A stretch of 64,000 bases of DNA from Kiritimatiellia bacterium (GTDB taxonomy: Bacteria > Verrucomicrobiota > Kiritimatiellia > RFP12 > UBA1067): positions 1-64,000 of the forward strand of contig JAFQYM010000036.1 in NCBI GenBank assembly GCA_017406465.1, in the 5' to 3' direction. Positions 181-17,032 of the stretch are shown one piece after another. Both the position numbers and the translations under genes were made by a program. Each line of letters opens with the position of its first letter. Within the stretch, counting starts at the first letter, position 1. A model generated the notes under the pieces. That model saw only the letters and a list, made by a program, of their open reading frames with translations, was not told the origin of the DNA and did not search any database.

Positions 181-1440
181 CTACAGATACCAGACAGGGA
201 AAGCCAGCAGATTGTCACGCAAGTGCGTCGGCGTGGAGCAATTACAAATGATAGCCCCCTGCCCGCGCTTCTTGCCCTTGATCTTCTCTAAGGCAGCAAA
301 CGCAGCGGCGTCGTTCGACTTTGGAGATGAGCTTTTCTTGATTTCGACGGGATAGAGCACTCCATTCTCCTCGATGACAAGGTCTATTTCGGACTCCACC
401 TCGACCCGCTGCCCTTCGCGCTGTACCGCAATCTTGTCACGGCCACGGTAATACGACACGAAATTCCGGTATTCAAGTCCCGCGTTGGAAAAACTCTTGA
501 GAATCTCCGAGACGACAAAGCTCTCGAACACGGCCCCGGCCATCGCGCCGCACGCCAGAGCATCAGCCGACAGCCAGCGTGTAAGATAGGCCACAAGCCC
601 CATGTCCCTGAAATGCAGTTTTGGAGCGCGAATCGCCCGCTTGAGTTCCGACGACGCATACGGCTGCAGCAGATATACGATTCCGGAAGTCTCGAGAATC
701 GACACCCAGCTTTTGACCGTCCCGACATCCTTGCCAATCTCGTCGGCGATGTTGGAGTAGTTCAAGACCTGTGCCGTCCGAGAAGCTGCGGCGACCATGA
801 ACTGGCGAAAGGCGGCAAGATCGTGTACTGCCTTGAGACTGCGCACGTCTCGCTCAAGATAGGTCTTCACGTAGTCGGCGTAATATGAATTCCAGTCCAC
901 TTCGGGATCTTGCAGTTCTGGATAGCCACCTCGATGGATTATTTTCCAGATTGACCCAGGATCCTTTGCGGTCTTTGAGCGCGAGAGCATGTATTCGTCC
1001 GTCGGCAGCACACGTTCCGCGAATGAATCGCCCGCAATCTCCCGCAGGGACAGTCCGTTCATTTCCAGTATGCGAACACGACCGGACAGTGACTCGCTCA
1101 CCCCCTGCATCAGCTGAAACGGCTGCGAACCGGAAAGGCAGTAAAGACCCTTCGCTCTGCGATTCTTGTCTGTCTCCATCTTGATGAAGCGGAACAAAAC
1201 AGGCGCATGCTGTACTTCGTCGATAGCAACGGGCGGAGGATTAAGCTGCATGAAGGTGCGGGAATCGTTCTTCGCCTGCTCTTCGACAAAAGGGTCATCC
1301 AGCGTCACATAGCGCAGATTGGGAAACACATGGGAAATCATAGTGGACTTTCCGACTTGGCGCGGACCAGTGACCAATACCGAGTTGCTGGTTTTCATCG
1401 CCTTAGCGAGCAACCCATCCATAAAGCGCTGTATGTACAT
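181..1440 (-). CDS. AAA+ ATPase with C-terminal DUF4143 domain
   Basis: A 419-residue protein. A P-loop GPRQVGKST lies near residues 25-33, a Walker B-like segment (VAIDEVQ) near 95 and a sensor-like LSGSQ near 127, matching the AAA_14 fold. The C-terminal half contains the DUF4143 pattern, including a PD-(D/E)XK-like segment ExDLVIEENGVLYPVEIKKS near residues 350-370. The family is widespread in gut bacteria and archaea, and its exact role is unresolved (often suggested to be defence- or mobile-element-linked). The start is supported by a GGAGGGC ribosome binding site just upstream. It lies outside the integrated element, beyond the displaced tRNA fragment, and is transcribed away from it. 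Confidence 0.9.
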   Translation of the reverse strand: MYIQRFMDGLLAKAMKTSNSVLVTGPRQVGKSTMISHVFPNLRYVTLDDPFVEEQAKNDSRTFMQLNPPPVAIDEVQHAPVLFRFIKMETDKNRRAKGLYCLSGSQPFQLMQGVSESLSGRVRILEMNGLSLREIAGDSFAERVLPTDEYMLSRSKTAKDPGSIWKIIHRGGYPELQDPEVDWNSYYADYVKTYLERDVRSLKAVHDLAAFRQFMVAAASRTAQVLNYSNIADEIGKDVGTVKSWVSILETSGIVYLLQPYASSELKRAIRAPKLHFRDMGLVAYLTRWLSADALACGAMAGAVFESFVVSEILKSFSNAGLEYRNFVSYYRGRDKIAVQREGQRVEVESEIDLVIEENGVLYPVEIKKSSSPKSNDAAAFAALEKIKGKKRGQGAIICNCSTPTHLRDNLLAFPVWYL

Positions 1441-1608: not shown

Positions 1609-1656
<48 letters not shown>

Positions 1657-1717
1657 TCAAGTAAAAACCCTAAAAACCCCTTTGTTTTTCATATATTCTC
1701 CGGCGGTTGCTGGGTTT

Positions 1718-1867: not shown

Positions 1868-3670
1868 ATGGGTTTGAAACTGATGAAGGACAACCACGGC
1901 GAATACCGCCGCATCTGGTACGCAACCATGCACGTGAACGGGACGGCTCGGCTGACCAGCCGCAGACTGAAAACCCCGCTTCGCGGAAAGATACCGCTGG
2001 ACGAGAACGGACGCTTCTCGCTCAACCTCACAGGCGACGCCGCATTCGAGAAGTCCAAGGCGGCGGCAACCGCAGAATTGAAAGCCGTCCTCGATACCGC
2101 CCGCGAGATGAAGGCAGAAGAGCGAAACTCACCCGGCTACGCCGAGTCCGAGGCGTACCGTAAACTCATGGGGAGGTCAATTGAGAATTACCGCATAGCA
2201 GACCTTGCGGAACTGAATGCTAGCAGGAGACCAAAGCATATACTCACATCAGACAAACGCAAATGCCGCTATGGTTTGTCGGTGTACAAAATACTTGAAC
2301 ACTTTGCCAAGTGGTGCGCCCGCTATTCAAACGGTAAGCCGCGAGCCCAGAAGTGCGTGAAACTAACAGACATCAGACGAAGTGTCGTAAGCGCGTACTT
2401 TAGCGAAATATACGAGGTTCAATCCCGTAGCACATTTCTGAAGTATGTTTTTCTCCTTGCCAGCACTTATCGCTACTATATGCCAACTGCGGTCGAAAAC
2501 CCATTCAAAAAGGAATACGAGGAATCTTACAAAAAAATCACTAAGGCGAATGTTGGCGTAAATTCAATAGTCCATGAAGCACCATCAGAAACGCAGATGC
2601 GCCAGATTTGGGAATATGCTCGAAACGACAGGAGCAAACCCTATCTGTATCGCCTTGCCGTAGTCGCCGCCTGTACGGGAATGCGAATAGGAGATTGTTG
2701 CAATCTGACTTGGGACAAGGTGGACTTGCTGAACTACCTCATCACCACAAGTACATCCAAGACGGGCAAGCCCATCGCCGTCCCCATCTTCGACTACGTG
2801 CAAAATTCAAAAGACTACGACGAAATACTGGGGGAGTTACGGCGTGAACTGGAAGCGGCTATCACAGAACGCGAAGGCGGCGAAAAGTACGTGATACCAG
2901 AAGCCGCCGCAATCTACAAGCGCGACCCATCGCGCATAAACAAAATCGGCAAAATGCTCTTCGCCCGTGCGCTCTTTTCTGCACCAGAACCGGAGAAAGC
3001 CGTGATTGTCGGCGAAGAACCAAAGAAGAAGTCTCCCGCAAAAATTCTGCGTACCATCGAATCGGCTAACATAAAACCGGAGAAGAAGAGTCGACTTATA
3101 CGGACATACGAACTCTTCAGCCATGGCAAGTCCTATCGTCAAATCGCCGATGCTATTGGCAACCGCAAAGGGAACGTCTCGGACGACTTGTCTATCATCG
3201 AAGATATGACGGGAGAGCGGTTGCGTCCGGGCAACCCGTACATGGGCGTAAATGCGAAGCCGAGCCTCAAGACGCTTCTCAAGAAGACGCGCCGTGAACG
3301 GACGCAGGGGCAACGCGCCGGCTGTCTCTACGGGTGGCACTCATGCCGCGTCTTTTTTGTCGTGAAGGCAATCAATGCGGGTCTCAAGCCAGAAGTTTTG
3401 ATGGACATCGTGGGACACGCCTCTGTTCAAATGGTACTTCACTACTATAATCCTAAAGAGTTTACCGCCGCAGAGAAGATGCGGGAGCAGTTCCGGCGCA
3501 ACCGCATTGAACGCGCCACTTTGCAAGCATCCCAACAAAAAAGCGCACTACCGATGGCGGACGCCCTTGCCGATGCAAGACGCGCCATACTCGAGTCCAC
3601 AAGCATGACACCCGAAGCCAAAGGAAAGGCGGTAGCGGCGTTAATCATGCTGTCCTCTTCCGGCAAATAA
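1868..3670 (+). CDS. Tyrosine-recombinase integrase with an inserted HTH segment
   Basis: A 600-residue tyrosine recombinase that would catalyse insertion into and excision from tRNA-Ala. The catalytic set is visible: R273 (CTGMRIGD), H491 and R494 (WHSCR), H517 (VGHAS) and Y526 nine residues later. The spacing R273 to H491 is 218 residues, against about 96 in XerD or lambda Int. The extra roughly 120 residues include a helix-turn-helix-like stretch near 414-450 (SYRQIADAIGNRKGNVSDDL). AGGAGG lies 8 nt before the start. The gene is adjacent to the left attachment site and is followed by a hairpin. Confidence 0.92.
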   Translation: MGLKLMKDNHGEYRRIWYATMHVNGTARLTSRRLKTPLRGKIPLDENGRFSLNLTGDAAFEKSKAAATAELKAVLDTAREMKAEERNSPGYAESEAYRKLMGRSIENYRIADLAELNASRRPKHILTSDKRKCRYGLSVYKILEHFAKWCARYSNGKPRAQKCVKLTDIRRSVVSAYFSEIYEVQSRSTFLKYVFLLASTYRYYMPTAVENPFKKEYEESYKKITKANVGVNSIVHEAPSETQMRQIWEYARNDRSKPYLYRLAVVAACTGMRIGDCCNLTWDKVDLLNYLITTSTSKTGKPIAVPIFDYVQNSKDYDEILGELRRELEAAITEREGGEKYVIPEAAAIYKRDPSRINKIGKMLFARALFSAPEPEKAVIVGEEPKKKSPAKILRTIESANIKPEKKSRLIRTYELFSHGKSYRQIADAIGNRKGNVSDDLSIIEDMTGERLRPGNPYMGVNAKPSLKTLLKKTRRERTQGQRAGCLYGWHSCRVFFVVKAINAGLKPEVLMDIVGHASVQMVLHYYNPKEFTAAEKMREQFRRNRIERATLQASQQKSALPMADALADARRAILESTSMTPEAKGKAVAALIMLSSSGK

Positions 3671-3814: not shown

Positions 3815-4174
3815 ATGGACGACATGACGCTCATAAGGAAAATAACTCTTGCCAGCCCTGAAAAAAAGGCGGCCGTCGTCGCCGTGCTGTCGGGCGCGGC
3901 TATCGTTGACAGAGGCAAAGCGCAGGATCAAGACGCAGACGCCTACCGCCTTGCGAAAATCACGGACGCGGCGAAACTTCTTGCCGTTGGAAGAAGCACC
4001 GTGTACAAACTCATCAAGACGGGACGCCTCGAAACGCGGGACTTGAACGGTTGTCAGCGGGTCACTATGCGCTCAATCAAGGAATTTATAGACGGCGAGC
4101 GTCCAGCAAACGAGCAAACGAAAGCCATCATCGCCGAATCAAAATCACGTTATGCACAAAGCCAATGCAAGTAG
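3815..4174 (+). CDS. Excisionase-like HTH_17 DNA-binding protein
   Basis: A 119-residue protein. Residues about 46-95 form a MerR/excisionase-type winged helix: a short strand (YRLAKITDAA), then LLAVGRSTVYKLIKTGRLE, then a strand and a C-terminal helix. The position directly after the integrase and the domain type suggest a recombination directionality factor or element regulator. The N-terminal 45 residues have no recognised domain. AAGGAAC serves as ribosome binding site. A strong terminator follows. Confidence 0.75.
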   Translation: MDDMTLIRKITLASPEKKAAVVAVLSGAAIVDRGKAQDQDADAYRLAKITDAAKLLAVGRSTVYKLIKTGRLETRDLNGCQRVTMRSIKEFIDGERPANEQTKAIIAESKSRYAQSQCK

Positions 4175-4192
4175 TCCGATTGAGATTGAGCG

Positions 4193-4235
4193 GCGAAAGG
4201 CACATCTGCTGGATGTGCCTTTCGCTTATTCTATT
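4193..4235 (+). terminator. Rho-independent terminator after the HTH_17 gene
   Basis: A perfect 14-bp stem GCGAAAGGCACATC (4193-4206) pairs with 4212-4225 across a 5-nt loop. It is followed by a T-rich tract TTATTCTATTTT. Confidence 0.9.
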
Positions 4236-4249
4236 TTGCTTGTCGTGAT

Positions 4250-4345
4250 TTGCGTTGTTTGCCGTTTATCCTTGTTTAGTAAATGGTGCATATTTCCACA
4301 CAACGCAACACAGTAGTGTTCATGTAGGCACACGGCAAACACAGC
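4250..4345. other. Nested inverted repeats, candidate replication or transfer origin
   Basis: TTGCGTTGT at 4250-4258 is inverted as ACAACGCAA near 4310-4318, and TTTGCCGT directly after it is inverted as ACGGCAAA near 4332-4339. The stretch between the plus-strand terminator and the end of the rep gene is AT-rich and has no open frame of note. Its place beside an HUH Rep fits a double-strand origin or oriT, but no nick site can be identified by eye. Confidence 0.35.
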
Positions 4346-4373
4346 ACCTCATATCTATTTTGTTTACACATAA

Positions 4374-5570
4374 TCAAGCAAGATAGTTCTTTAGTGCTTT
4401 GGTCATGCGCATCGTGGAATTACGAAGTTTCGGAGGTTTCGACCGTTTACGCTTGTTCAGCGTTTTCTTTACCTGTTGTACGATTGTCTCCACAATTTGA
4501 GATGTAACGCCAACGAACAGCCCAGCAATTGTAAACTTTTCAGGGAAAGGTTTGTCTTTGTGGACTTTTCTCCATATTCCCCTCAAAACCCCATCTCTGA
4601 TTTCTGGCGGAATGAGAATGGCTTCGGGTTTCAATTCCTCCAAGTTTTTCTTTTGCACCTTCCCCCACGGTTTTCCTCTTGGATAGCATTGCGTTGTCTT
4701 TGCTAAATAGTTAATCAATTTTGGCATGTAATCAGGGTCTGCTTCCTCATCAATCATTCTCGTACATACTCCGTACTGCCAAAAAAACCGCATTTTGCAT
4801 TGAGGAATAGGGCGACAACGAATTGCGTTGAACCACAATACTCGGAAGGTATTATGCACAAAGTCTGTTACCTCGTCCGACATTGAAGGCATAATTCCAC
4901 CTGCGTCAATAATAGCCTGCCTTTTGGCTTTCCGCATTTTTGCAACCCATGTGTATGCGTCAGTTGCCCAGTCATAATCCAAAGGCGTGTAAACAATGGC
5001 GTGTATATGCGGCCCTCCGTCTTCCGTCATTTCCCGGCGATAAATTATTGCGCATCGTTTGAAACACCGCGCAAATGAGGTGCTAAAAGTTTTTTGTGCT
5101 TTCTCGAAATCATCCAAGATTGCTTCTTGTCTCCACTCCTTTCCCTTCCAATTCTCTTCGCCCCAATGGTGTACCGTGAGCGTGACGTGATATTTGATTG
5201 AGCCGCGAGGCAAATCAAGACAATCTACAGCCTTCTTGAATTTTCGTTGAGATGCACGTGAAAAGCCCACAATCCTACCTCTTTTGGACTCCTTTATCCC
5301 TGTCCAATAACCTCGAAGACCTGTTTCGTGTCCGATTATCACCCCATGTGGAGTTTTATAGTCGTGCCCATTCTTATACCGATACTCCGCCCTGCCTGAT
5401 TTCTCGTTTTTCAGACGCTTAACAGATTTCCCGAATTCTTTCAGAGTGTGTTCTACACTTTTTGCGTCTAAATCAGTCTTGCGACCAGTTAGTAAATCAC
5501 TCATAAATGGAGTTAGACATCCCAACTCCTCCGCATCCTTCAATAGTTTCTTTTTCTTGTAGTCAATCAT
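4374..5570 (-). CDS. HUH-family rolling-circle Rep / relaxase
   Basis: A 398-residue protein with the three motifs of HUH endonucleases in order. Motif 1 is a strand YHVTLTVHH near residues 127-135. Motif 2 is PHIHAIVY with H188 and H190 as metal ligands. Motif 3 is YxxxxxxYLAK with Y281 and Y288 as candidate nucleophiles. It would nick and religate one strand to start rolling-circle replication or transfer of the excised element. It is the last gene of a nine-gene operon starting at 8980; AAGGAGC inside the end of the preceding gene serves as its ribosome binding site. Base composition is more AT-rich than in its neighbours. Confidence 0.82.
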   Translation of the reverse strand: MIDYKKKKLLKDAEELGCLTPFMSDLLTGRKTDLDAKSVEHTLKEFGKSVKRLKNEKSGRAEYRYKNGHDYKTPHGVIIGHETGLRGYWTGIKESKRGRIVGFSRASQRKFKKAVDCLDLPRGSIKYHVTLTVHHWGEENWKGKEWRQEAILDDFEKAQKTFSTSFARCFKRCAIIYRREMTEDGGPHIHAIVYTPLDYDWATDAYTWVAKMRKAKRQAIIDAGGIMPSMSDEVTDFVHNTFRVLWFNAIRCRPIPQCKMRFFWQYGVCTRMIDEEADPDYMPKLINYLAKTTQCYPRGKPWGKVQKKNLEELKPEAILIPPEIRDGVLRGIWRKVHKDKPFPEKFTIAGLFVGVTSQIVETIVQQVKKTLNKRKRSKPPKLRNSTMRMTKALKNYLA

Positions 5571-6017: not shown

Positions 6018-6251
6018 CTAATCCTCGTCGTCGAATGAAATACCAAGGCTACGCTTCATATCCGCCTCCTGTCGCCCGAAGGCGTCCTCTTCCATCGGTA
6101 TGCCTGTCTCCTCTTCCTTTCGGACGCGAAGTTTGTACACCTCCTCGCCGAAGCGTTCGGGGTCGTCGAAGATTTCCGAATCAAGCATATCGACCAACTC
6201 GCAGATGTTCTTCTTTGAGGTGTCGGTCTTCAGTATCTCGTCTGCTGTCAT
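6018..6251 (-). CDS. Small acidic protein of unknown function
   Basis: A 77-residue protein starting at 6251, where GGAGG precedes the ATG. The longer reading frame upstream is rejected because this site overlaps the stop of the previous gene (ATGA). The protein is rich in Glu, Asp and Lys and predicted helical. No recognisable domain. Operon position between the 88-residue protein and the ASCH gene supports it being real. Confidence 0.65.
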   Translation of the reverse strand: MTADEILKTDTSKKNICELVDMLDSEIFDDPERFGEEVYKLRVRKEEETGIPMEEDAFGRQEADMKRSLGISFDDED

Positions 6252-6514
6252 GGCTGCCTCCGTTTCTTTTCCTTTTCCCAAGGCTTCCCATACTTCCCGT
6301 AGTAATCCGACGCCAGAACCTCCCACTCGTCGTTGAGGTCTTCTTCTGGAACGTAAGTGCCCATTGCGGAATGCCACGCCATGCCCGAATCCTTGGGCAG
6401 TTTGTAGTTGGGCTTCATCTTCACCGTGTGCGCGACGCCGTTCTCGTCTATCGCCGTCGTCGGGTTGGGAAAGACGATTACTGGCGGCTCTATGAAGTCA
6501 TCTTCGGCCCTCAT
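6248..6514 (-). CDS. Small protein of unknown function
   Basis: An 88-residue protein linked to both neighbours by 4-bp ATGA overlaps (6511-6514 and 6248-6251), typical of translational coupling. It has a Pro-rich first half (PPVIVFPNP), a central acidic segment and a basic C-terminus (KEKKRRQP). Its family is not recognised. Confidence 0.7.
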   Translation of the reverse strand: MRAEDDFIEPPVIVFPNPTTAIDENGVAHTVKMKPNYKLPKDSGMAWHSAMGTYVPEEDLNDEWEVLASDYYGKYGKPWEKEKKRRQP

Positions 6515-7167
6515 TGAACGTCTCCTTCCTTATCCGTGATTGGGGCTTCGCTTTCGTCCCATATCAGTTTTTCGTCAAGCAGAGTGTCTGCCATGACATT
6601 ATCAATCATCAACCTGTAGTGCGATTCCTCGACGGCGTTGCTTCTCCGGGCTTCGAGAAGCGCGTTCATCATCGCCTCTCTCGAAACCATACCTCGCTTG
6701 TAGCGGTCGTACAGTCCCAACACCCCGCCCCCGTCGCGTCCCTCGCCAAATGGGGACAGGCGGAATCCGGCGGCTCGCCCAAGCGAAAGAAGTCTGTCGA
6801 TGGCTCTGCGGAACTGCAAGACCGAACGGGTTTCCCAGTCGTCAAGCCCTGCAATGACAAGGCAGATTCTGGGAAGCGGGACTCTCGTCTTGGCGTTGTA
6901 CTCGGCAAGGTTGCGTATCCGCCTTTGGGCAAACGCCTCAAGCCGAAGTTTCATTTCCATCATCAAGAGCGACCGCACAATCAGAATGCCAAGGCACTCG
7001 TCCGTACATGGATTCTCTATGTGCGGCAACCGTCGTCCCTGTTCTTCAGCCCTCTGCAAGACGAGCGGAGGGTACACCACCTCAAGAGGCGGCAGACAGC
7101 CCTCCAGCCGCCGCAGACCGGCTTCACATCCAAAGGCGTATGTCAACGTTTCTGTCTTCGCGTTCAT
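6511..7167 (-). CDS. FtsK-like protein without a Walker A motif
   Basis: A 218-residue protein. Residues about 55-115 follow the FtsK/SpoIIIE/TcpA motor pattern: TDECLG, then MEMKLRLEAFAQRRIRNLA, then EYNAK and a hydrophobic strand LPRICLVIAG where FtsK proteins carry Walker B (VVVDE). No GxxxxGK[ST] is present and the Walker B acids are replaced, so it should not hydrolyse ATP. It probably derives from the coupling/translocase ATPase of a related element and may act as an adaptor with Rep. ATGA overlap with the next gene; GGAGA precedes the start. Confidence 0.6.
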   Translation of the reverse strand: MNAKTETLTYAFGCEAGLRRLEGCLPPLEVVYPPLVLQRAEEQGRRLPHIENPCTDECLGILIVRSLLMMEMKLRLEAFAQRRIRNLAEYNAKTRVPLPRICLVIAGLDDWETRSVLQFRRAIDRLLSLGRAAGFRLSPFGEGRDGGGVLGLYDRYKRGMVSREAMMNALLEARRSNAVEESHYRLMIDNVMADTLLDEKLIWDESEAPITDKEGDVQ

Positions 7168-7228
7168 TTGTCTTACTGTCTCCTATTTCTGTTTGAGTTT
7201 TACCTTTCAATGCGTGTCGTTGCGCGTG

Positions 7229-7372
7229 TTAATTCGCCAACCCATACATTGCGTCTTTCCCCTGCGTTTTTGCCCCGAAAAACTTAATTCTTGACACTTT
7301 CAGGATTTTTTTCGGAGGCCATCGCGCGCCCACGCGCCCGCGACCCTCACTGTTCACTTTCTTTGCCGCCAT
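7229..7372 (-). CDS. Small very basic protein (47 residues)
   Basis: A short frame beginning with AGGAGG five nt before ATG, one of the best ribosome binding sites of the operon. The product starts MAAKKVNSEGRGRVGARW and is rich in Lys/Arg with few acidic residues, suggesting nucleic-acid contact. It lies in the 256-bp gap between the two FtsK-like genes, in the same direction. No family recognised. Confidence 0.5.
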   Translation of the reverse strand: MAAKKVNSEGRGRVGARWPPKKILKVSRIKFFGAKTQGKDAMYGLAN

Positions 7373-7423
7373 TTTTGCCTCCTGTTTCTTCGCGTATTTT
7401 GAAACTTTCCATGTCCCGCTCCA

Positions 7424-8293
7424 TCATGTCCGCAAGCAGACTTCGGACACGAACATCTTCGCCGCCGCCTTTGTCCTTGGGGTGCTAATCGGTGTGGCTA
7501 CCTGCATGGCGTATTCCGCCTCCGAACGGCTGTTGAACCATGTGCAGTGCTTCACAGACGACACCCAAGAGAACCCGACCTTGCTGTACCCCCTCGCAAG
7601 TGCGAACACGCGGGCGGACTCATTGCCTTTCGGCATAACACGGCAAACGACATATCCACAGTCGCCCTTGAGACCTTTTCCCGCATCATCCTGCGCCACG
7701 GCAACTTCTCCGCCGCCGAGCCGCACAACACGAATGGGTGCAAGGGCATCCGCCAAACGCGCCGCCATGCTCTCGCCCTCGTCATCGTCTTGGGACGCGA
7801 AGACGGCGTAGATGCCGACATCGCGGGCAGACAGAAGCGCAGGGCGCATCCCCTCGACAAGAGGCACGTCGGCGGCGGAGCAGACCGCCTCGACGACCAA
7901 GACGATTATGGGCAACTTATCGCCCGTCTTCTCGTCGTACTCGTCAAGACTGCCGACCCCCGCACGGGCAAACAGCCCTTGGCGGCGTTCCATTTCGGGC
8001 GCGAAGAAGCCCATAGCATCCAGCGGCGCGTTGTCCGTCTCTACCTCCGCCTTGACGTTGGGGATGTCCGGCAGCATCTTCAGGATCGTCTGCCGCCCGA
8101 ATGCGCGTATTTCCAGTTCATCCGCAGAGCGTCCAGCCGCCAGCGATTCAAGGAGCGAGCGCAGAGCGCGTAACCGCTCCTTGCGCGAAGCACCCCCAGC
8201 GAGGAGAAGCCCCGCTCCGATTTTCCCGCCGCCGATGTCGATTGCTTCGCCAGCCGCGCCGTTGACAGTTGCCGTCAGTTTCGAGTTGTTCAT
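7424..8293 (-). CDS. FtsK-like protein with degenerate ATPase motifs
   Basis: A 289-residue protein; the start at 8293 is preceded by AAAGGGA. An FtsK-type layout is visible: GAGLLLAGGASRKERL where Walker A (GxTGSGKS) is expected, then ETDNAPLDAM, APEMERRQGLFARAGVGSL, DEYDEKTGDKLPIIVLVVEA at the Walker B place, and ARDVGIYAVFASQ at the sensor strand. The P-loop lysine and Walker B acids are missing. It is thus a second pseudo-ATPase next to the one at 6511-7167. The C-terminus (FARGYSKVGF-like, then a Ser/Cys-containing tail) is specific to this protein. Confidence 0.62.
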   Translation of the reverse strand: MNNSKLTATVNGAAGEAIDIGGGKIGAGLLLAGGASRKERLRALRSLLESLAAGRSADELEIRAFGRQTILKMLPDIPNVKAEVETDNAPLDAMGFFAPEMERRQGLFARAGVGSLDEYDEKTGDKLPIIVLVVEAVCSAADVPLVEGMRPALLSARDVGIYAVFASQDDDEGESMAARLADALAPIRVVRLGGGEVAVAQDDAGKGLKGDCGYVVCRVMPKGNESARVFALARGYSKVGFSWVSSVKHCTWFNSRSEAEYAMQVATPISTPRTKAAAKMFVSEVCLRT

Positions 8294-8668: not shown

Positions 8669-8980
8669 TCACGCTCCCTTCCGGCTGTCGCCCTTGCCCG
8701 CGAACCTCTTTGTGAGTTCCCATCCGGGCTTGCGGTCGCGTCCCGCACGGACTGCGGCATCCACACGCGCCCGCCGCGCCGTGTTCACGGCAAGGCGTCT
8801 TGCCGCCCATGCCTCCGCCTTCGGGGTTGCCGTCACCTTGCGGACGGCTTCGTGGACGAGCCGCGCCACGATGACGCTCATCGTCACGTCTTGCTCATCC
8901 GCCAGCGTCATTACTTTCGCCGCGTCGCCGATGTCGCATCTGCTCATCAGCGCGTAGGTCGTCGGTCTTGCCTGTCTCAT
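8669..8980 (-). CDS. Small basic helical protein, possible mobilization accessory
   Basis: A 103-residue protein; start at 8980 with AAAGGAGAAACG before it. It opens with MRQARPTTYALMSRCDIGD and then a helical segment VTMSVIVARLVHEAV, followed by an Arg-rich half. The layout is reminiscent of ribbon-helix-helix MobC-like accessory proteins, but the match is weak. It is the first gene of the Rep operon and follows a long structured leader. Confidence 0.6.
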   Translation of the reverse strand: MRQARPTTYALMSRCDIGDAAKVMTLADEQDVTMSVIVARLVHEAVRKVTATPKAEAWAARRLAVNTARRARVDAAVRAGRDRKPGWELTKRFAGKGDSRKGA

Positions 8981-9197
8981 CGTTTCTCCTTTCGTTTCTC
9001 GTTTTCTTTGTCCGTCCAAAGCACCACGAGTAACGCACCCCTCGGAGAAACTTCAAGCCACCAGTCTTCGTTCAAAACTGGTGGCTCTGGAACCCAGTTT
9101 CCCTTTCGGGCACATCCGCTTTCGCGCTCCACCGTGGCAGTTCCGTCGCTCGGTTGGCATCATCGCTTTCGCAATGAACTCTATGATGTTCTGAACG
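8981..9197 (-). ncRNA. Structured leader RNA of the Rep operon (copy 2 of a two-member family)
   Basis: The expected transcript start (about 9197) gives a 217-nt leader. It begins with CGUUCA (9197-9192), which is complementary to UGAACG (9074-9069) in the loop of a 9-bp hairpin GCCACCAGU/ACUGGUGGC, forming a pseudoknot. Between them lie a GAAA-capped hairpin, the conserved core GCCAACCGAGCG and GCCACGGUGGAG (9158-9127), a CGCGAAAGCG hairpin, a CCCGAAAGGG hairpin and a GGAAC/GUUCC closing helix. The same elements in the same order, with changed but still paired stems, occur at 15306-15173. Confidence 0.7.
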
Positions 9198-9281: not shown

Positions 9282-12200
9282 TCAACCAAGCCACTCCTTC
9301 GACAGCGTGGAGAGTTTCTGCATGAGGGCGCGGGTACGGGAAAGCGCAAGAATGATGGCCTGGTAGTGGTCGATGTCTTCATTCGCGAGCGTGTGTCCTT
9401 TTCTGTCCTTCAGCCACTTCTGCGCGGGCTGGTAGCCGCCGATGAACATCCCCCATGCCTCTTCCGGCACATGGTCGAAATACTGCTCGTCGTTGATGTA
9501 CACCTTGCCGTTGGCAAAGCGCACGTCCTCAACGGCATTGCCCCCGCCCTTGGGGAAGTTGGCGATGCGGTTGCGTTCGCTCGCCGTGGGCTTCGCCTTC
9601 AGCAGATGCGTCTCGCGGAGTTCTCCGCCAATCTTCGCAAGTTTCTTGAACACCGCCGCGTTCGTCGGATAGGGTATGCGCGGGAAATCGACCTTAAGGA
9701 ACTCCCTGTACCGTTCGCGGTATTCGGGCGTGTGCAGAACGGCGTAGATGTAGTCGAAGAGTTCTTCCGGCGACGGCTTGCGCTTCAAGCCGTCAGCAAT
9801 GCGCCCAAACACATCCTTGTCGAAATTCGCCACCTTCTCCACGTTCCCCAGCGTGTCTTGGTAGAGGTAGAGAGGGAAGACATAACCACGCTCTTTCGTA
9901 CGACTTGAAACAAAGCAATCGTCCACAAGGCAATCCGCTACGCCAACAAGATTCCAATCATTCGTTGCAAGATGTTTGCAAACGACAAGTGCAATGTTGT
10001 CATGCTGGTGGATATGCTGCATGACAGGCTTCCTTTGCCGCCACACCGTCTTTGGAGTAAAGCATACCCATCTATCATCAAATGGACGATATGAATAGCG
10101 GACTATGTTACTACTGGAATCTATCGGCAAGTTGCCCAAGACAAAAGAAGCATAGTTTTTCCCAAGACCATACTTCGCCTTGAGTTCTGCCTCTTTGTAA
10201 CCCTTGCCATTGATGTCGCTTATACGTTCCTTGAGTTCATCTTGCGTATGTGCAACTGCGAAGGAATCCCCCATCGTCAGAACTGCGGTACTGTTAATCG
10301 GTAACAATGCGTCAATGCCGAATCCCGATTGGTACTGGTCGCTCCCCGCTTCATTCTGCGGCACAAGCAAATAGTATGGTGCGGTCGGCGTAACAGTAGC
10401 GAACCCCACAGTCGCAAGCGACTTGCTTTCGAGGTATGCGAACTTGTCCTTGCGCGTCCCCCACAGGTCGGCATAGTGGACTTTTGCGAGTTCACCTTTT
10501 TTCTTCTTGCCTGTCTTGACGAATATGTTTATTGCCGTGCCTACGGTGATTGAAAACACGTTCTCGTCCTTGCTGCCATTGGGGGCTTTCTCGTGCTTCA
10601 TGGAGTTGCCGTGAAGGTTCAGCACGTAGATTTCGTCGAAGCAGTCGAGAAGTTGCCACCGCATACCCCTAAACGTCGGGTTGTCGAGAAGCCCGTGGTT
10701 GTTGATGTAGGCGAGTACACCTTCTCCCCTGCGCTCCACGTAGTCCTGTGCAAGGCGAATGAACTTCACGTAGTCGTCGTTCAGCCAGTGCTTGCGCTCC
10801 TTCAGCTTCTCCTTCCCGCCCGGTTCCGTCTTGTAGTCCGCCACGAGGTCGGAAATCCACTTGCCGTTGTTCTGCGAGATGCCGCTGTAGGGCGGGTTGC
10901 CCATGACGACCATCACGGGGCAGTCGCGCTTGACGGCGTTCGCAGCGTTCGCCTCCGCGCCGAGGAGGATGTCGAAGAGCGTACCGCTCAAGTCCTTCGC
11001 CTTTTCAAGCGAATTGGTGAGAAAGATGTTGAAGCGTTTGTCTGTGTTGTGTTCATAGCCGGTGTCGGCGAGAACGCGGTCGAGCTTGATGTGCGCCATC
11101 GTGTAGGGGGCCATCAGAAGTTCAAAGCCGTTGAGACGCGGAATAAGGTTTTCAGCGACGTAGCCGGGCCACTTGCCTTTGTTGGCGAGGAACTTGCCGT
11201 AGATGCGGTTGATACACTCCGCTAGGAACGTCCCCGTTCCTGTCGCAGGGTCGAGAACCTGGACTTTCGGCACGGTCTTTTTGACCTTCTTCGTCAGGGA
11301 CTTTCCCGTGTCGCAGTTTTCCGTCACTTCAATCTGCACCATGTCGCGGCTGGCTATGCCGTCCGCGATGCCGAATTGTTTCACAAGGATGTCGTCGACG
11401 GCGCGGACGATGAAGCGCACCACGGGAAGCGGAGTGTACCATACGCCTCTATCCTTGCGCAGGCCCGCATCGTAGGCGTTGAGGAAGTCCTCGTAGAAGT
11501 GAATCATCGGGTCGCTGCGCTTTTTGGACTTTCCGTAGTCCTTCATGATGCCGCGCACGTCGGCGGCGGCGAAGAGACGAACGATGTCATCGACGGGCCA
11601 CTTGATTTCGTCCTCGATGTCGGAATTGATGTGGTTGAAGAGTTTGCGCAGGAATGGATTGGATTTCGGGATAAGACGCGCCGCCTCTTCGCGCGAGAAG
11701 TCCTCCGGCATGTCGTCGTGGAGACGTGCGGCGAACATTCCGTATGTGAGCGTCTGCGCGTAGATGTCGGAGAACTCGTCCGCGTTGGTGTCGGGCATGA
11801 GTACGCGCTTGAAACCCTCCATCAGTTCCCAGAGCGTCGAACCTTTGGCATTGCCGCTCGAAAGGAACTTCTGCGCGGCGACCTGAAGAAGCCGCGCCTT
11901 CGCCGCCATGAACTGCGCGAGCTGGGTCGGGGAGGTGATGGTCTGCGGCTCGGCATCGCCGAGGCGTTCGACAAGCGCGACGAACTTGCCGAAGTTCTCG
12001 GAAAGCGGGCGGATGCCGTCGCCAACCACCTCGCCGATGCGCACAGAATCGACGAATGCGCCGTTCTCGTAGAAATGGAAGTCGAGGAAGTCGGTGAATG
12101 CTATCGTCTGGTACGCCGCCTTGTAGCGGTCAAACTGCTCCTTGTAGCCGGAATCCTTCTTGCCGGCGAGGTCTCCCGCTCCAATCTTCTTCGTTTCGAC

Positions 12201-12458
12201 GATTGCGATTAGGAGACCGCCGTCAGGATCGGTCGTTATGGTGTAGTCGGGCTTGTTGCGCTCCATCGGCTTCGGCTCGTTCGTGACGCCGCGATTGGGT
12301 AGCAATGCCCGCAGAAGCGGCGAAAGCGCGTCGCGGTAGGACACTTCCGTTGCCTTACCCGTCCTGTACATCCTGTCCACGGCTTCAATGTATGCCACAC
12401 ACGCCGCTTCCTCTTTCGTCACGGAAGCGGACTTCTGAACAGTCTTTTTCGTCTTCAC
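9282..12458 (-). CDS. Type ISP/IIG-like restriction-modification enzyme
   Basis: A 1,058-residue single-chain enzyme. The N-terminal part carries a nuclease-like segment (KPDYTITTDPDGGLLIAIVE, then TKK near residues 70-92). The middle is an N6-adenine methyltransferase with motif I VLDPATGTGTF (D403) and motif IV NPPY (521-524). The C-terminal third matches the type ISP specificity domain. No helicase motifs are seen between nuclease and methyltransferase. It would methylate host DNA and cut unmethylated invading DNA. The start is GTG at 12458; its AGAGG ribosome binding site lies in a helix of the leader. Divergent from the AlbA_2 gene. Confidence 0.85.
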   Translation of the reverse strand: MKTKKTVQKSASVTKEEAACVAYIEAVDRMYRTGKATEVSYRDALSPLLRALLPNRGVTNEPKPMERNKPDYTITTDPDGGLLIAIVETKKIGAGDLAGKKDSGYKEQFDRYKAAYQTIAFTDFLDFHFYENGAFVDSVRIGEVVGDGIRPLSENFGKFVALVERLGDAEPQTITSPTQLAQFMAAKARLLQVAAQKFLSSGNAKGSTLWELMEGFKRVLMPDTNADEFSDIYAQTLTYGMFAARLHDDMPEDFSREEAARLIPKSNPFLRKLFNHINSDIEDEIKWPVDDIVRLFAAADVRGIMKDYGKSKKRSDPMIHFYEDFLNAYDAGLRKDRGVWYTPLPVVRFIVRAVDDILVKQFGIADGIASRDMVQIEVTENCDTGKSLTKKVKKTVPKVQVLDPATGTGTFLAECINRIYGKFLANKGKWPGYVAENLIPRLNGFELLMAPYTMAHIKLDRVLADTGYEHNTDKRFNIFLTNSLEKAKDLSGTLFDILLGAEANAANAVKRDCPVMVVMGNPPYSGISQNNGKWISDLVADYKTEPGGKEKLKERKHWLNDDYVKFIRLAQDYVERRGEGVLAYINNHGLLDNPTFRGMRWQLLDCFDEIYVLNLHGNSMKHEKAPNGSKDENVFSITVGTAINIFVKTGKKKKGELAKVHYADLWGTRKDKFAYLESKSLATVGFATVTPTAPYYLLVPQNEAGSDQYQSGFGIDALLPINSTAVLTMGDSFAVAHTQDELKERISDINGKGYKEAELKAKYGLGKNYASFVLGNLPIDSSSNIVRYSYRPFDDRWVCFTPKTVWRQRKPVMQHIHQHDNIALVVCKHLATNDWNLVGVADCLVDDCFVSSRTKERGYVFPLYLYQDTLGNVEKVANFDKDVFGRIADGLKRKPSPEELFDYIYAVLHTPEYRERYREFLKVDFPRIPYPTNAAVFKKLAKIGGELRETHLLKAKPTASERNRIANFPKGGGNAVEDVRFANGKVYINDEQYFDHVPEEAWGMFIGGYQPAQKWLKDRKGHTLANEDIDHYQAIILALSRTRALMQKLSTLSKEWLG

Positions 12459-12756: not shown

Positions 12757-14163
12757 ATGACCGAAACCGACAGAATAGAGTACAAGCGGGAACTTTCGCC
12801 CGACATCGACCTTGAAGAGGAAGCGGTCGCGTTTCTCAATAGGCGCGAAGGCGGCATTCTCTACATCGGCATCGACAAGGCGGGCAATCCTGTCGGCGTG
12901 AAGGACATCGACGGCGACATCCTCAAAATCAAGGACAGACTGCGCAACAACATCCTTCCGTCTGCAATGGGGCTGTTCGATGTGACGGCGGATGTTATAG
13001 GCGGCGCGAAAGTCATCAAAGTGTTCTTCGCGGGCGGAAGCGAAAAGCCATACTACCTCAAACGTTATGGCATGACTCCGAAAGGCTGTTTCATCCGTGT
13101 GGGTACGGCTTGCGAGCCGATGCCGGAGGCGATGATTGAAGACCTGTTCGCAAGGCGTGTGCGCAACTCCATCGGGCGCATCCGTTCCGTCCGCCAAGAC
13201 CTCACCTTCGAGCAGTTGCGCATCTACTACCAAGAACACGGCTTCAAACTCAACGACAATTTTGCGCGGACGCTGGAGCTGCTGACGGACGACGGTGCAT
13301 ACAACTACGCCGCGTATCTGCTTGCCGACGAAAACGCGAACTCAATCAAGGTTGCGAAGTATGCGGGGCGCGACCGTGTGGAACTTGTCGCCAATAACGA
13401 ATACGGCATGACATCACTCGTCACCGCCACAAAGCGCGTAATCGAGCGGCTGAAGGTAGAGAACACCGTGCGGACGCGCAAGACCGCCTTGGAGCGCATC
13501 GACACGCCGCTGTGGGACGAACGCGCCGTGCGCGAAGCCGTCATAAACGCCATCGTCCATAACGACTACACTCGCGAAGTGCCGCCCAAGGTCGAACTCT
13601 TCTCCGACCATCTGGAGATAACATCGTTCGGACGCTTGCCGGAAGGTCTGACAAAGGATGACTTCTTCGCGGGTGTCTCAATTCCGCGCAATAAGGAATT
13701 GATGCGCATCTTCCGCGACCTTGAACTCGTCGAATCGCTCGGTTCCGGCATGGGCTACATCATGCAGAAGTACGGGCGCGACAACTTCATTTTCCTCGAT
13801 AACTTCATCCGCATGACCGTCCCCTACATCACCAAGGACAGGGAGGGTCTGGTGGTGGAAGCCGAACAAGCGACACCCCAAGTAACACCCCCAGTAGGCG
13901 TCAACCCTACAAGCAACCCTACAAGTAGCCTACAAGTAACCCTACAAGTAAATCGGCTTATTTCCATAATCAAGGGTGATATGCCACGGTCTGCAATAAT
14001 GGACGCATTGTCTCTTAAGGACAGGGTGACATTCACCGAAGATTACCTTCGCCCAGCCATGCGGCTTGGGCTAATTGAACTGACACAGCCTGATTCTCCG
14101 CGTTCGCCCACGCAGAAGTATCGTCTTACTGCAAAGGGCATGGCGGCTCTGGAAAAAGCATAG
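12757..14163 (+). CDS. Schlafen AlbA_2 / RecG-like regulator
   Basis: A 468-residue protein. Residues 5-115 match the AlbA_2 (Schlafen-like) domain (RIEYKREL, then GGILYIGIDKAGNPVGV). Residues about 255-350 match the HATPase_c_4 part often labelled RecG-like (REAVINAIVHNDYT, SLGSGMGYI). A Thr/Pro/Val-rich linker with repeated TPQVT and NPTS words leads to a C-terminal winged-helix (residues 395-468). Such proteins are common in mobile elements and act as regulators or stress/defence factors; substrate unknown. The start lies 9 nt after TATAAT, so the mRNA should be leaderless. Confidence 0.8.
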   Translation: MTETDRIEYKRELSPDIDLEEEAVAFLNRREGGILYIGIDKAGNPVGVKDIDGDILKIKDRLRNNILPSAMGLFDVTADVIGGAKVIKVFFAGGSEKPYYLKRYGMTPKGCFIRVGTACEPMPEAMIEDLFARRVRNSIGRIRSVRQDLTFEQLRIYYQEHGFKLNDNFARTLELLTDDGAYNYAAYLLADENANSIKVAKYAGRDRVELVANNEYGMTSLVTATKRVIERLKVENTVRTRKTALERIDTPLWDERAVREAVINAIVHNDYTREVPPKVELFSDHLEITSFGRLPEGLTKDDFFAGVSIPRNKELMRIFRDLELVESLGSGMGYIMQKYGRDNFIFLDNFIRMTVPYITKDREGLVVEAEQATPQVTPPVGVNPTSNPTSSLQVTLQVNRLISIIKGDMPRSAIMDALSLKDRVTFTEDYLRPAMRLGLIELTQPDSPRSPTQKYRLTAKGMAALEKA

Positions 14164-14164
14164 C

Positions 14165-15109
14165 CTATTCTTCTATCGGGTTGCCGCTAATATCCTTGTG
14201 CTGGTAGTGCCGACGCGCCATTGCAACGGGCATACCACGGGCATAAGAGTGAATATGCTTGATGATGTAATCCCAATCGGCATCTTGCATCTTGGTGAAG
14301 ATTTCAGGTTGCGTCATCTTACGCCCATCCTGTTCTGCGGGCGGCTCGTCCTTGCCGATAAACTCGACCCAGCGAACATTCTCGTAGTACCGCTTTGCCA
14401 AATCGGGGGCGGCGGCATAGATTGCGTCAGAGACCCATACGCCTTTCCAACAGGATGTATTCTTTGCCAGCGACGCTTCCCATTTGTGATATGCCTCCAT
14501 CGGAAACCATTTTCCGGTCTCACGTTTATAACAAGTTCCACACGCGGCTTTGCTGGTGATGGTGCCGCAACGATGCATAAGCTTAAACCACTCTTCATCC
14601 GTTCTCGCGGCAAGTTTCCTGTCGCGTTCGCTCATTGCTTCCATGCCATCATCCTTGTCCTTGCCTTTCTTCAAGTCCATCCGCGCCTTCCAGATGTTCT
14701 TGAAATGTTCCTTCGCCGATTCGTTGCTTTCGTTTACAATGAGGTATTCGAGCGAATCGAAGTCCATTGCATCCTCGATTGCCTTGCGGATGGCACGATA
14801 TTCAAGCATCGGGAAGTTGGGTCTCTCGTGGTTCTCAGAGAAGTAGAAATTCAAGGAAAGGCGTAGACGCGCCCCCGTAGGAGCTTCCATGAAGAGGTCA
14901 CGCCAGTATTCGTTGCCGCCGTTCCATGTGACGTTTCCGCTCTCGTCGGCGGTGGGCTTGCCGATGAACGCTTCAAGAGCGGCAAGCATTTCGGCTTCCG
15001 TGATATGTTTTCGCCCGTCGTCGTCGCCTCTTGCCGCAGATTTCGCATCAAGCAACTTCTTGTAAATGCTCTGCGCCACGCATTCATCCATATTTTCTTT
15101 CGGCATCAT
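14165..15109 (-). CDS. Element protein of unknown function with a Cys cluster
   Basis: About 314 residues. The start is placed at 15109 (or the next ATG at 15106) after GGACAGGACGACC; the longer frame would run into the structured leader. It is a soluble, charged protein. A segment near residues 180-200 (HRCGTITSKAACGTCYKR) holds three cysteines and one histidine that could bind zinc. It lies convergent with, and one base from, the AlbA_2 gene. I do not recognise the family. Its leader RNA is related to that of the Rep operon, which hints at common control. Confidence 0.65.
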   Translation of the reverse strand: MMPKENMDECVAQSIYKKLLDAKSAARGDDDGRKHITEAEMLAALEAFIGKPTADESGNVTWNGGNEYWRDLFMEAPTGARLRLSLNFYFSENHERPNFPMLEYRAIRKAIEDAMDFDSLEYLIVNESNESAKEHFKNIWKARMDLKKGKDKDDGMEAMSERDRKLAARTDEEWFKLMHRCGTITSKAACGTCYKRETGKWFPMEAYHKWEASLAKNTSCWKGVWVSDAIYAAAPDLAKRYYENVRWVEFIGKDEPPAEQDGRKMTQPEIFTKMQDADWDYIIKHIHSYARGMPVAMARRHYQHKDISGNPIEE

Positions 15110-15306
15110 GGTCGTCCTGTCCGTGCAAGCGCATCGGGAGGACTCCATGTCCCGCAATCGCGAAGCCGCCGTCGTTCAGGACGTGCGGCTTCTCGGAACG
15201 ATGTTTCCCCGCAAGGGGCGCATCTCGGCATCTTGCCGACTCCACCGTGGCGTTCCGCTCGGTTGGCACTCCCGCACAGGGCGGAAGTTTCCTGATGTCT
15301 TGAACG
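15110..15306 (-). ncRNA. Structured leader RNA (copy 1 of a two-member family)
   Basis: The transcript should start near 15306 with CGUUCA (15306-15301), complementary to UGAACG (15178-15173) inside the loop of a GAAGCCG/CGGCUUC hairpin. In order between them: an 8-bp hairpin ACUUCCGC/GCGGGAGU, the core GCCAACCGAGCGGAAC then GCCACGGUGGAG (15267-15240), an UCGGC/GCCGA hairpin, a CCCCUUGCGGGG hairpin within GAUG/CAUC, and GUUCC closing on GGAAC. The order and unpaired core match 9197-9069, while the stems differ in sequence. Confidence 0.7.

Positions 15307-16955: not shown

Positions 16956-17032
<77 letters not shown>

What the first reader, a model, noticed from the sequence alone, without database searches (positions are those of the whole stretch)
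6511..8293. Two adjacent FtsK-like proteins that both lost the ATPase motifs
The proteins at 6511-7167 and 7424-8293 keep the FtsK/TcpA pattern around EM(K/E)RR..LFA..G(V/I)R.L..Y(N/D)(A/E)K and the hydrophobic strand of Walker B, but neither has GK[ST] nor the Walker B acids. Elements with an HUH Rep normally carry one active FtsK-like coupling ATPase. Two inactive ones in one operon suggest a hexamer scaffold without motor function, or adaptors that recruit the host's FtsK or a helper element's ATPase.
Basis: partly seen in the sequence, partly recalled or inferred. Interest (0 to 1): 0.72.

Follow-up and report, generated by a model that had tools for sequence, protein, structure and literature searches.

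The report
Two motorless FtsK-like mobile-element proteins
A mobile DNA element in gut bacteria carries two relatives of the FtsK DNA pump that have lost the parts needed to burn ATP, yet related elements keep them that way under selection, so they probably work as helper parts rather than as motors.

Summary
P1 (6511-7167, -) and P2 (7424-8293, -) are homologues of the FtsK motor domain. P2 has a degenerate P-loop (GGASRKERL) and no catalytic Glu; P1 starts after the P-loop and has AG where FtsK has DE. No frameshift hides a motif. All relatives found (P1 in G056, G041, G055; P2 in G056; one 260-aa protein in G061) are equally dead, form one clade, and P1/P2 evolve under purifying selection (P1 omega 0.17-0.23; P2 0.32), so they are not pseudogenes. 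P1 and P2 keep the arginine aligned with the trans-acting finger (6 of 6 rows); the catalytic residues needed in cis are gone.

They lie in a 15.3-kb tRNA-Ala element, in an operon led by a SAM-I/IV-like riboswitch. The 'pair with HUH Rep' idea is only partly right: P2 and Rep co-occur in the same two genomes, but P1 also occurs without Rep or P2, and in the four loci that can be read it lies near a Type IIG restriction enzyme. No VirD4/VirB4-type helper was found above cut-off in five genomes. Best reading: pseudo-ATPase subunits acting on an active FtsK-type motor, probably the host's. The partner is inferred, not shown.

The parts
1609..1656 (.). attL: 48-bp direct repeat, copy of the 3' part of tRNA-Ala(GGC), next to the integrase
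   Evidence: sequence; pattern; 48/48 bp identical to the G056 att. The Rfam 'tmRNA' hit here is this tRNA-Ala fragment
1868..3670 (+). tyrosine integrase, 600 aa
   Evidence: Pfam Phage_integrase 1.8e-14; 83% identical in G056
3815..4174 (+). HTH_17 protein, excisionase-like by position (inference)
   Evidence: Pfam HTH_17 5.3e-8; 86% in G056
4374..5570 (-). HUH Rep, 398 aa
   Evidence: Pfam REP_ORF2-G2P 8.2e-5, below cut-off; HIH motif and a downstream Tyr kept in G056 Rep at 33% identity
5577..6014 (-). 145-aa protein of the operon (ASCH-like by eye only; no Pfam hit)
   Evidence: PHROG 3193, unknown function, 5.3e-13; 88% in G056
6018..6242 (-). 74-aa protein, found with P1 in all five loci
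6248..6514 (-). 88-aa protein of the operon
   Evidence: 73% in G056; no hit in the G041, G055, G061 loci
6511..7167 (-). P1: P-loop-less FtsK-like protein, 218 aa, with a C-terminal helical tail that is a separate ORF in G061
7321..7345 (-). 25-nt G+C-rich hairpin in the P2-P1 spacer, identical in G056
   Evidence: longest shared word 25 nt against at most 12 in 200 shuffles; spacer otherwise 64% identical over aligned positions; in 2 of 61 genomes of the genus
7424..8293 (-). P2: full-length FtsK-motor-like pseudo-ATPase, 289 aa
8320..8664 (-). 114-aa protein of the operon, no family hit
   Evidence: in 11 of 155 genomes of the order; no FtsK-like gene found around the eight other copies fetched
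8669..8980 (-). 103-aa protein, first gene of the operon, no family hit
   Evidence: present in all five P1 loci
9085..9194 (-). SAM-I/IV-like riboswitch leader of the operon, with a TATAAT box upstream
   Evidence: Rfam SAM-I-IV 36.1 bits here, cut-off 41.1; the G056 and G041 orthologues score 43.7
9282..12458 (-). Type IIG/ISP-like restriction-methylation enzyme, 1058 aa
   Evidence: Pfam Type_ISP_C 3.4e-70, N6_Mtase 1.9e-7; PADLOC REase_MTase_IIG 3e-291
12757..14163 (+). Schlafen AlbA_2 / HATPase_c_4 / Fic-like_C protein, cargo
14165..15112 (-). 315-aa protein, no family hit; follows the second leader
   Evidence: relatives by tblastn also in leader loci of G041, G056, G160, G065, G027, G004
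15191..15303 (-). second SAM-I/IV-like leader
   Evidence: Rfam 38.9 bits, cut-off 41.1
16956..17003 (.). attR: 48-bp direct repeat inside tRNA-Ala(GGC) 16957-17032

Best explanation
P1 and P2 are catalytically dead descendants of an FtsK-type DNA-pump domain, kept by selection in a tRNA-Ala-integrated mobile element of Kiritimatiellota-type gut/rumen bacteria. Shown: homology, loss of the catalytic residues in cis, the predicted fold, one dead clade, purifying selection, the operon. Inferred: they work as non-motor subunits. P2, which has the whole RecA-like core and keeps the residues aligned with the arginine finger and sensor-1 Gln, would dock at the subunit interface of an active FtsK-family ATPase and modulate or tether it for the element's benefit. 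P1, which lacks the P-loop half but keeps the finger arginine and adds a helical tail, would act as a capping or adaptor piece. The likeliest active partner is the host's own FtsK, the only clear FtsK-family motor found in the host genome. Expression is probably gated by the SAM-I/IV-like leader.
For: FtsK homology and dead motifs. Fold: P2 best Z 15.8 over 208 residues at 3.5 A to FtsK, 13.4 to TcpA; P1 best Z 9.8 over 118 residues. Dead proteins form one side of a branch with support 98/97 against 22 other FtsKs. Purifying selection: P1 window-G056 omega 0.17 (bootstrap 0.10-0.25), G041-G055 0.23 (Fisher 1.7e-3), P2 0.32 (0.20-0.48). Arginine column: R in P1 4 of 4, P2 2 of 2, intact 30 of 30 (A4) and 15 of 15 (A5); sensor Gln in P2 2 of 2 and 30 of 30 intact. 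Host FtsK is the only family match in G000 with E below 0.006 besides P2; no VirB4/VirD4-type helper above cut-off in five genomes.
Against: No partner, complex or phenotype is shown. The G061 relative lost the arginine as well (A), and P1 lost the sensor Gln. P2 codons 1-60, which hold the old P-loop, are not significantly constrained (omega 0.48, Fisher p=0.064), and most of P2's middle is near-identical DNA in the two elements, perhaps by recent recombination. P1 persists without Rep, Int or P2, which fits a role outside transfer. Models are of modest confidence (mean pLDDT 66 and 61) and their alignments included intact FtsKs, so the fold is not an independent test. Long branches could inflate the clade support. 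The host genome is 83% complete, so a helper motor could be missing.
Confidence: 0.42

Rival explanations
1. Poison subunits: P1/P2 enter the hexamers of a competing FtsK-type pump (of a plasmid, conjugative element or phage, or of the host during segregation) and stall it, so the element blocks rivals or delays division.
For: cis-dead subunits would break the ATP cycle of a ring (general mechanism, from knowledge). P1 stays when Rep and Int are gone and lies beside or near a Type IIG restriction enzyme in all four loci where this can be seen. Other genomes of the genus carry small intact FtsK-like genes that could be targets.
Against: P1 and P2 keep the finger arginine, which a pure poison would not need. 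RM linkage may only reflect common descent of one element backbone.
Confidence: 0.22
2. Exapted FtsK fold with no ATPase partner: DNA- or RNA-binding or structural accessory proteins of the element, for example for Rep at an origin.
For: P2 and Rep occur in the same two genomes of the genus; a 25-nt hairpin between P2 and P1 is conserved in exactly those two.
Against: Rep differs almost completely between the two elements while the hairpin is identical; P1 lives without Rep.
Confidence: 0.14
3. Targeting modules of the neighbouring restriction enzyme, in the spirit of 'HerA/FtsK capture' defence systems: they recognise FtsK-type pumps or their DNA and bring the nuclease to the invader.
For: Type IIG enzyme upstream in 4 of 4 loci whose contig reaches that far; P1's only PADLOC match is SspH; concept in PMC10853773, passages read.
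Against: [quoted passage not shown] here it is dead. P1 follows a leader of its own, after the restriction gene. Linkage is not independent evidence, as the elements are related.
Confidence: 0.12
4. Decaying remnants of a lost coupling ATPase with no present function.
For: Motifs lost; truncated elements in G041, G055, G061; the P-loop region of P2 is weakly constrained.
Against: Open frames and purifying selection in all comparisons of P1, dS near 1; shared dead state in one clade.
Confidence: 0.08

Closest known systems
TcpA / FtsK-like coupling proteins of ICEs and IMEs with RCR-type relaxases (PMC5357655, passages read)
   Same: FtsK-type motor domain encoded upstream of a rolling-circle-type Rep in a tyrosine-integrase element; P2 model resembles pCW3 TcpA (Z 13.4)
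   Different: ATPase-dead; two genes; P1 lacks the P-loop half; no VirB4/VirD4-type genes above cut-off in five genomes; host group is not Firmicutes
Degenerate ATPase domains of type VII secretion EccC/EssC (D2, D3, DUF; PMC11154593, passages read)
   Same: FtsK-type domains that lost Walker A, catalytic Glu and ATP binding yet are needed; P2 hits EssC at 1.2e-7
   Different: There they are in one chain with other ATPase domains; P1/P2 stand alone in a mobile element
'HerA/FtsK capture' anti-invader systems, DndH/SspH (PMC10853773, passages read)
   Same: FtsK-clade domain near restriction genes; P1 matches SspH at 2e-8
   Different: Those domains are described as translocases and occur with other defence genes; P1/P2 are dead and separate
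RecA-fold pseudo-ATPase cofactors such as Psy3-Csm2 (function recalled; listed for P1 at Z 6.5, rmsd 4.5, 111 aligned)
   Same: RecA-like fold without ATPase activity, works on an active relative
   Different: Different clade; low Z; analogy only

Membership tests
FtsK_SpoIIIE (PF01580) superfamily, by descent | significant sequence match | tested here: met
   P2 4.7e-5, just under the curated cut-off; P1 none in Pfam but PHROG FtsK-like 1.8e-7, SspH 2e-8; P1-family profile hits the host FtsK at 2.5e-5 (the profile includes the G061 row)
FtsK_SpoIIIE (PF01580) superfamily, by descent | RecA-like core | tested here: met
   P2 Z 15.8; P1 partial, Z 9.8; alignments held intact FtsKs
Active FtsK/TcpA-type ATPase | Walker A G..G.GK[ST] | tested here: not met
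Active FtsK/TcpA-type ATPase | Walker B D-E with catalytic Glu | tested here: not met
   E-A in P2, A-G in P1
Active FtsK/TcpA-type ATPase | arginine upstream of strand 4 (finger) | tested here: met
   R157 in P2, R131 in P1; lost in G061; definition from PMC10853773
Active FtsK/TcpA-type ATPase | sensor-1 Gln | tested here: inconclusive
   kept in P2, lost in P1 and G061
TcpA coupling protein of an IME | gene upstream of an RCR-type relaxase/Rep | tested here: met
   P2, P1 upstream of the HUH Rep in G000 and G056; three other loci have no Rep match
TcpA coupling protein of an IME | helper conjugation system reachable | tested here: inconclusive
   no PF12846 or PF02534 match above cut-off in five genomes; genomes incomplete, helper could be in another cell
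EccC/EssC degenerate ATPase domain | in one chain with other FtsK-type domains, one of them active | tested here: not met
   stand-alone ORFs of 218 and 289 aa
HerA/FtsK capture system | active HerA/FtsK translocase domain | tested here: not met
SAM-I/IV riboswitch (RF01725), operon leader | score above Rfam gathering | tested here: inconclusive
   window copies 36.1 and 38.9 bits against 41.1; orthologues 43.7; 17 of 20 related leader loci pass
SAM-I/IV riboswitch (RF01725), operon leader | binds SAM and switches expression | not testable with these tools
   needs in-line probing or reporter

The most novel reading that the evidence does not exclude
A mobile element whose replication/transfer operon is switched by the cell's SAM level and encodes FtsK-derived pseudo-subunits, dead in cis but able to give an arginine finger in trans, that plug into the host's FtsK ring and redirect it. 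This would be a way of hijacking a chromosome-segregation motor without bringing a motor.
Probability: 0.13. Interest if true: 0.8.

Novelty: new variant of a known kind. Interest (0 to 1): 0.5.

Why it matters
Pseudo-ATPases of the FtsK fold are known as parts of larger secretion ATPases. Stand-alone ones, one of them without the P-loop half, kept by selection inside a mobile element, would make testable whether a dead subunit can steer a live DNA pump and whether small elements borrow the host FtsK this way. The SAM-riboswitch-like leader on the same operon suggests a link between methyl-donor level, restriction-modification and element activity.

Tried and rejected
Frameshift or misannotation: rejected. 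All relatives are dead; a stop lies just upstream of P1 in its frame; no full P-loop in other frames of the genes.

Pseudogenes: rejected for P1, unlikely for P2.

tmRNA as attachment site: Rfam gave tmRNA fragments at the left end; the direct repeat shows that the site is tRNA-Ala.

25-nt hairpin as Rep nick site: considered, weakened because Rep differs while the hairpin is identical.

114-aa operon protein as a guide to active relatives: found in 11 of 155 genomes; around the eight further copies no FtsK-like frame.

Phages and plasmids: no relative of Rep. Viral contigs: no relative of P1, P2 or Rep. Genome contigs with the P1 profile: 4 loci, the same four genomes.

No paper in these listings describes stand-alone ATPase-dead FtsK proteins in a mobile element or a SAM riboswitch on a mobilisation operon, but the terms were narrow (searches returned nothing) and the library lacks most subscription journals. 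I saw listings with starts of abstracts for these, passages of PMC5357655, PMC11154593, PMC10853773 and PMC12839542, and no whole paper.

Fold lists are no proof of absence of other families.

Full report
What is there. The two ORFs lie on the minus strand, P1 at 6511-7167 (218 aa) and P2 at 7424-8293 (289 aa), 256 bp apart, P2 first in the direction of transcription. They sit inside a mobile element bounded by a 48-bp direct repeat (1609-1656 and 16956-17003) that is the 3' part of tRNA-Ala(GGC), so one unit is 15,347 bp. A tyrosine integrase and an HTH_17 protein lie next to the left repeat. The operon runs leader, 103-aa, 114-aa, P2, P1, 88-aa, 74-aa, 145-aa, HUH Rep. Cargo: a 1058-aa Type IIG/ISP-like restriction-methylation enzyme and a Schlafen AlbA_2 protein. 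Four genomes with relatives are named in public records as an uncultured Verrucomicrobia, an uncultured bacterium, a Lentisphaerae and a Kiritimatiellae bacterium; the last is from sheep rumen by its title.

Homology and dead motifs. P2 matches FtsK_SpoIIIE at 4.7e-5, 23.4 bits against a cut-off of 24, and EssC at 1.2e-7. P1 has no Pfam hit but matches FtsK/SpoIIIE-like PHROGs at 1.8e-7 and SspH at 2e-8. I aligned them with intact FtsK-like proteins from viral contigs: 80 loci were returned, I checked 40, 38 had open frames over the match, and I used 30 with P2 and 15 with P1. All 30 have Walker A; 28 of 30 pass my strict hhhDE pattern, but all 30 have D and E at the two columns. P2 has R at the Lys column, L at Ser/Thr, E at the Asp column, A at the Glu column. 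P1 begins after the P-loop and has A and G at D and E. The arginine just upstream of strand 4, which PMC10853773 (passages) gives as the arginine finger of the HerA/FtsK clade, is kept in P1 (4 of 4 rows) and P2 (2 of 2) and lost in G061 (A). The sensor Gln is kept in P2 and lost in P1 and G061.

Relatives. In 161 genomes of the order, 40 have some match to the P1-family profile; the family itself is in five of them, G000 (the window), G056, G041, G055 and G061, and the other 35 match through other, longer FtsK-like frames. P2 searched alone matched 21 of 145 genomes, but a close relative was found only in G000 and G056; the rest are FtsK-level matches plus one unrelated frame. G056 has the same element with P1 at 77%, P2 at 86%, integrase 83%, restriction enzyme 92%, but Rep at only 34%; the Rep stretch (window 4186-5567) is the only part between the left repeat and 13847 that does not align as DNA. 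G041 and G055 have the restriction enzyme, 103-aa, P1 and 74-aa genes, without hits to 114-aa, P2, 88-aa, 145-aa, Rep or integrase; G061 has a single 260-aa protein that matches both P1 (45%) and P2 (33%), with P1's C-terminal tail as a separate ORF. So P1 occurs in loci without Rep, and P2 and Rep occur in the same two genomes of the genus. On a tree of 29 rows the seven dead proteins are one side of a branch, support 98/97, P1 with G061 at 97/93; branches are long, so this is suggestive.

Selection. Nei-Gojobori omega: P1 window-G056 0.17 (bootstrap 0.10-0.25, Fisher 2e-20), window-G041 0.19, G041-G055 0.23 (0.08-0.60, Fisher 1.7e-3); P2 window-G056 0.32 (0.20-0.48, Fisher 1.4e-6). By parts, P2 codons 1-60 give 0.48 (Fisher 0.064, not significant), 61-235 0.07 and 236-284 0.23. 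The middle of P2 is 97.9% identical DNA, perhaps by recombination.

Structure. P2: mean pLDDT 66, residues about 30-180 mostly above 70; FtsK 2ius E=4.7e-9 by Foldseek, Z 15.8, 208 residues, 3.5 A. P1: mean pLDDT 61; EssC 8.4e-5, FtsK Z 9.8, 118 residues, 3.3 A. The input alignments contained intact FtsKs, so these models are not independent of the homology claim.

Possible partners. In G000 the FtsK model finds the host FtsK (2.5e-56), P2, and ten weak matches at E 0.006 or worse. VirB4-type AAA_10 and VirD4-type T4SS-DNA_transf models give no match above cut-off in the five genomes (two sub-threshold AAA_10 matches, in 950- and 848-aa frames, in G055 and G061). Completeness of G000 is 83%. 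Small intact FtsK-like genes exist in other genomes of the genus and family, without the neighbours of P1/P2 in the loci checked.

The leader. 9085-9194 and 15191-15303 match Rfam SAM-I-IV at 36.1 and 38.9 bits, below the cut-off of 41.1; the G056 and G041 copies score 43.7. A covariance model from four leaders finds relatives in 24 of 114 genomes of the family. Of 20 loci given to Rfam (30 were delivered), 17 pass its cut-off; the three that do not are the two window copies and G055. Among these leaders, one is directly upstream of metK and one of an operon with metK (Pfam; others by eye). So the class is very likely a real SAM riboswitch here, and the element seems to carry diverged copies.

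Mechanism. Loss of cis residues in all members, conserved finger arginine in P1 and P2, the kept core fold of P2 and purifying selection together favour non-motor subunits that act on an active FtsK-family ring. Which ring, and whether it is helped, tethered or stalled, is inference. P1's association with the restriction enzyme in the four loci that can be read leaves room for a role in conflict between elements. I give the co-subunit reading 0.42, poison 0.22, exaptation without ATPase 0.14, capture-type targeting 0.12, decay 0.08.

Verdict. The finding is real and unusual, a new variant of the known theme of degenerate FtsK-type domains (EccC/EssC, PMC11154593; compare IME TcpA, PMC5357655).

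Noticed in passing
window 9085-9194 and 15191-15303; 24 of 114 genomes of the family: SAM-I/IV-like leaders on mobile-element operons as well as in front of metK. Two per element here.
   Followed up: partly
window 4186-5567 versus L052: The Rep cassette is the one part from attL to 13847 that does not align as DNA between two otherwise 85-88% identical elements, as if swapped.
   Followed up: partly
window 7321-7345: 25-nt hairpin identical in G056 inside a poorly conserved spacer between P2 and P1; in 2 of 61 genomes of the genus. Function unknown.
   Followed up: partly
L053, L054, L055: In G041 and G055 homology to the element ends at the same point right after the 74-aa gene, with different flanks; in G061 the tRNA-Ala site and an integrase remnant lie just beyond that gene. 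Unexplained common boundary.
   Followed up: partly
L063:9071-10729 (G004): 552-aa protein with a DnaA-like N-terminal part (by eye) and an intact FtsK-type motor domain.
   Followed up: no
window 181-1440: AAA_14/DUF4143 ATPase just outside the left repeat, strong match to PADLOC PDC-S01.
   Followed up: no
window 1610-1680: Rfam calls a tmRNA here, but it is a tRNA-Ala 3' fragment made by integration.
   Followed up: yes
L059:5340-6134 and 7583-8284 (G009): Two separate small FtsK-like frames, both with intact P-loops by eye, within 3 kb of each other: a live counterpart of the pair.
   Followed up: no
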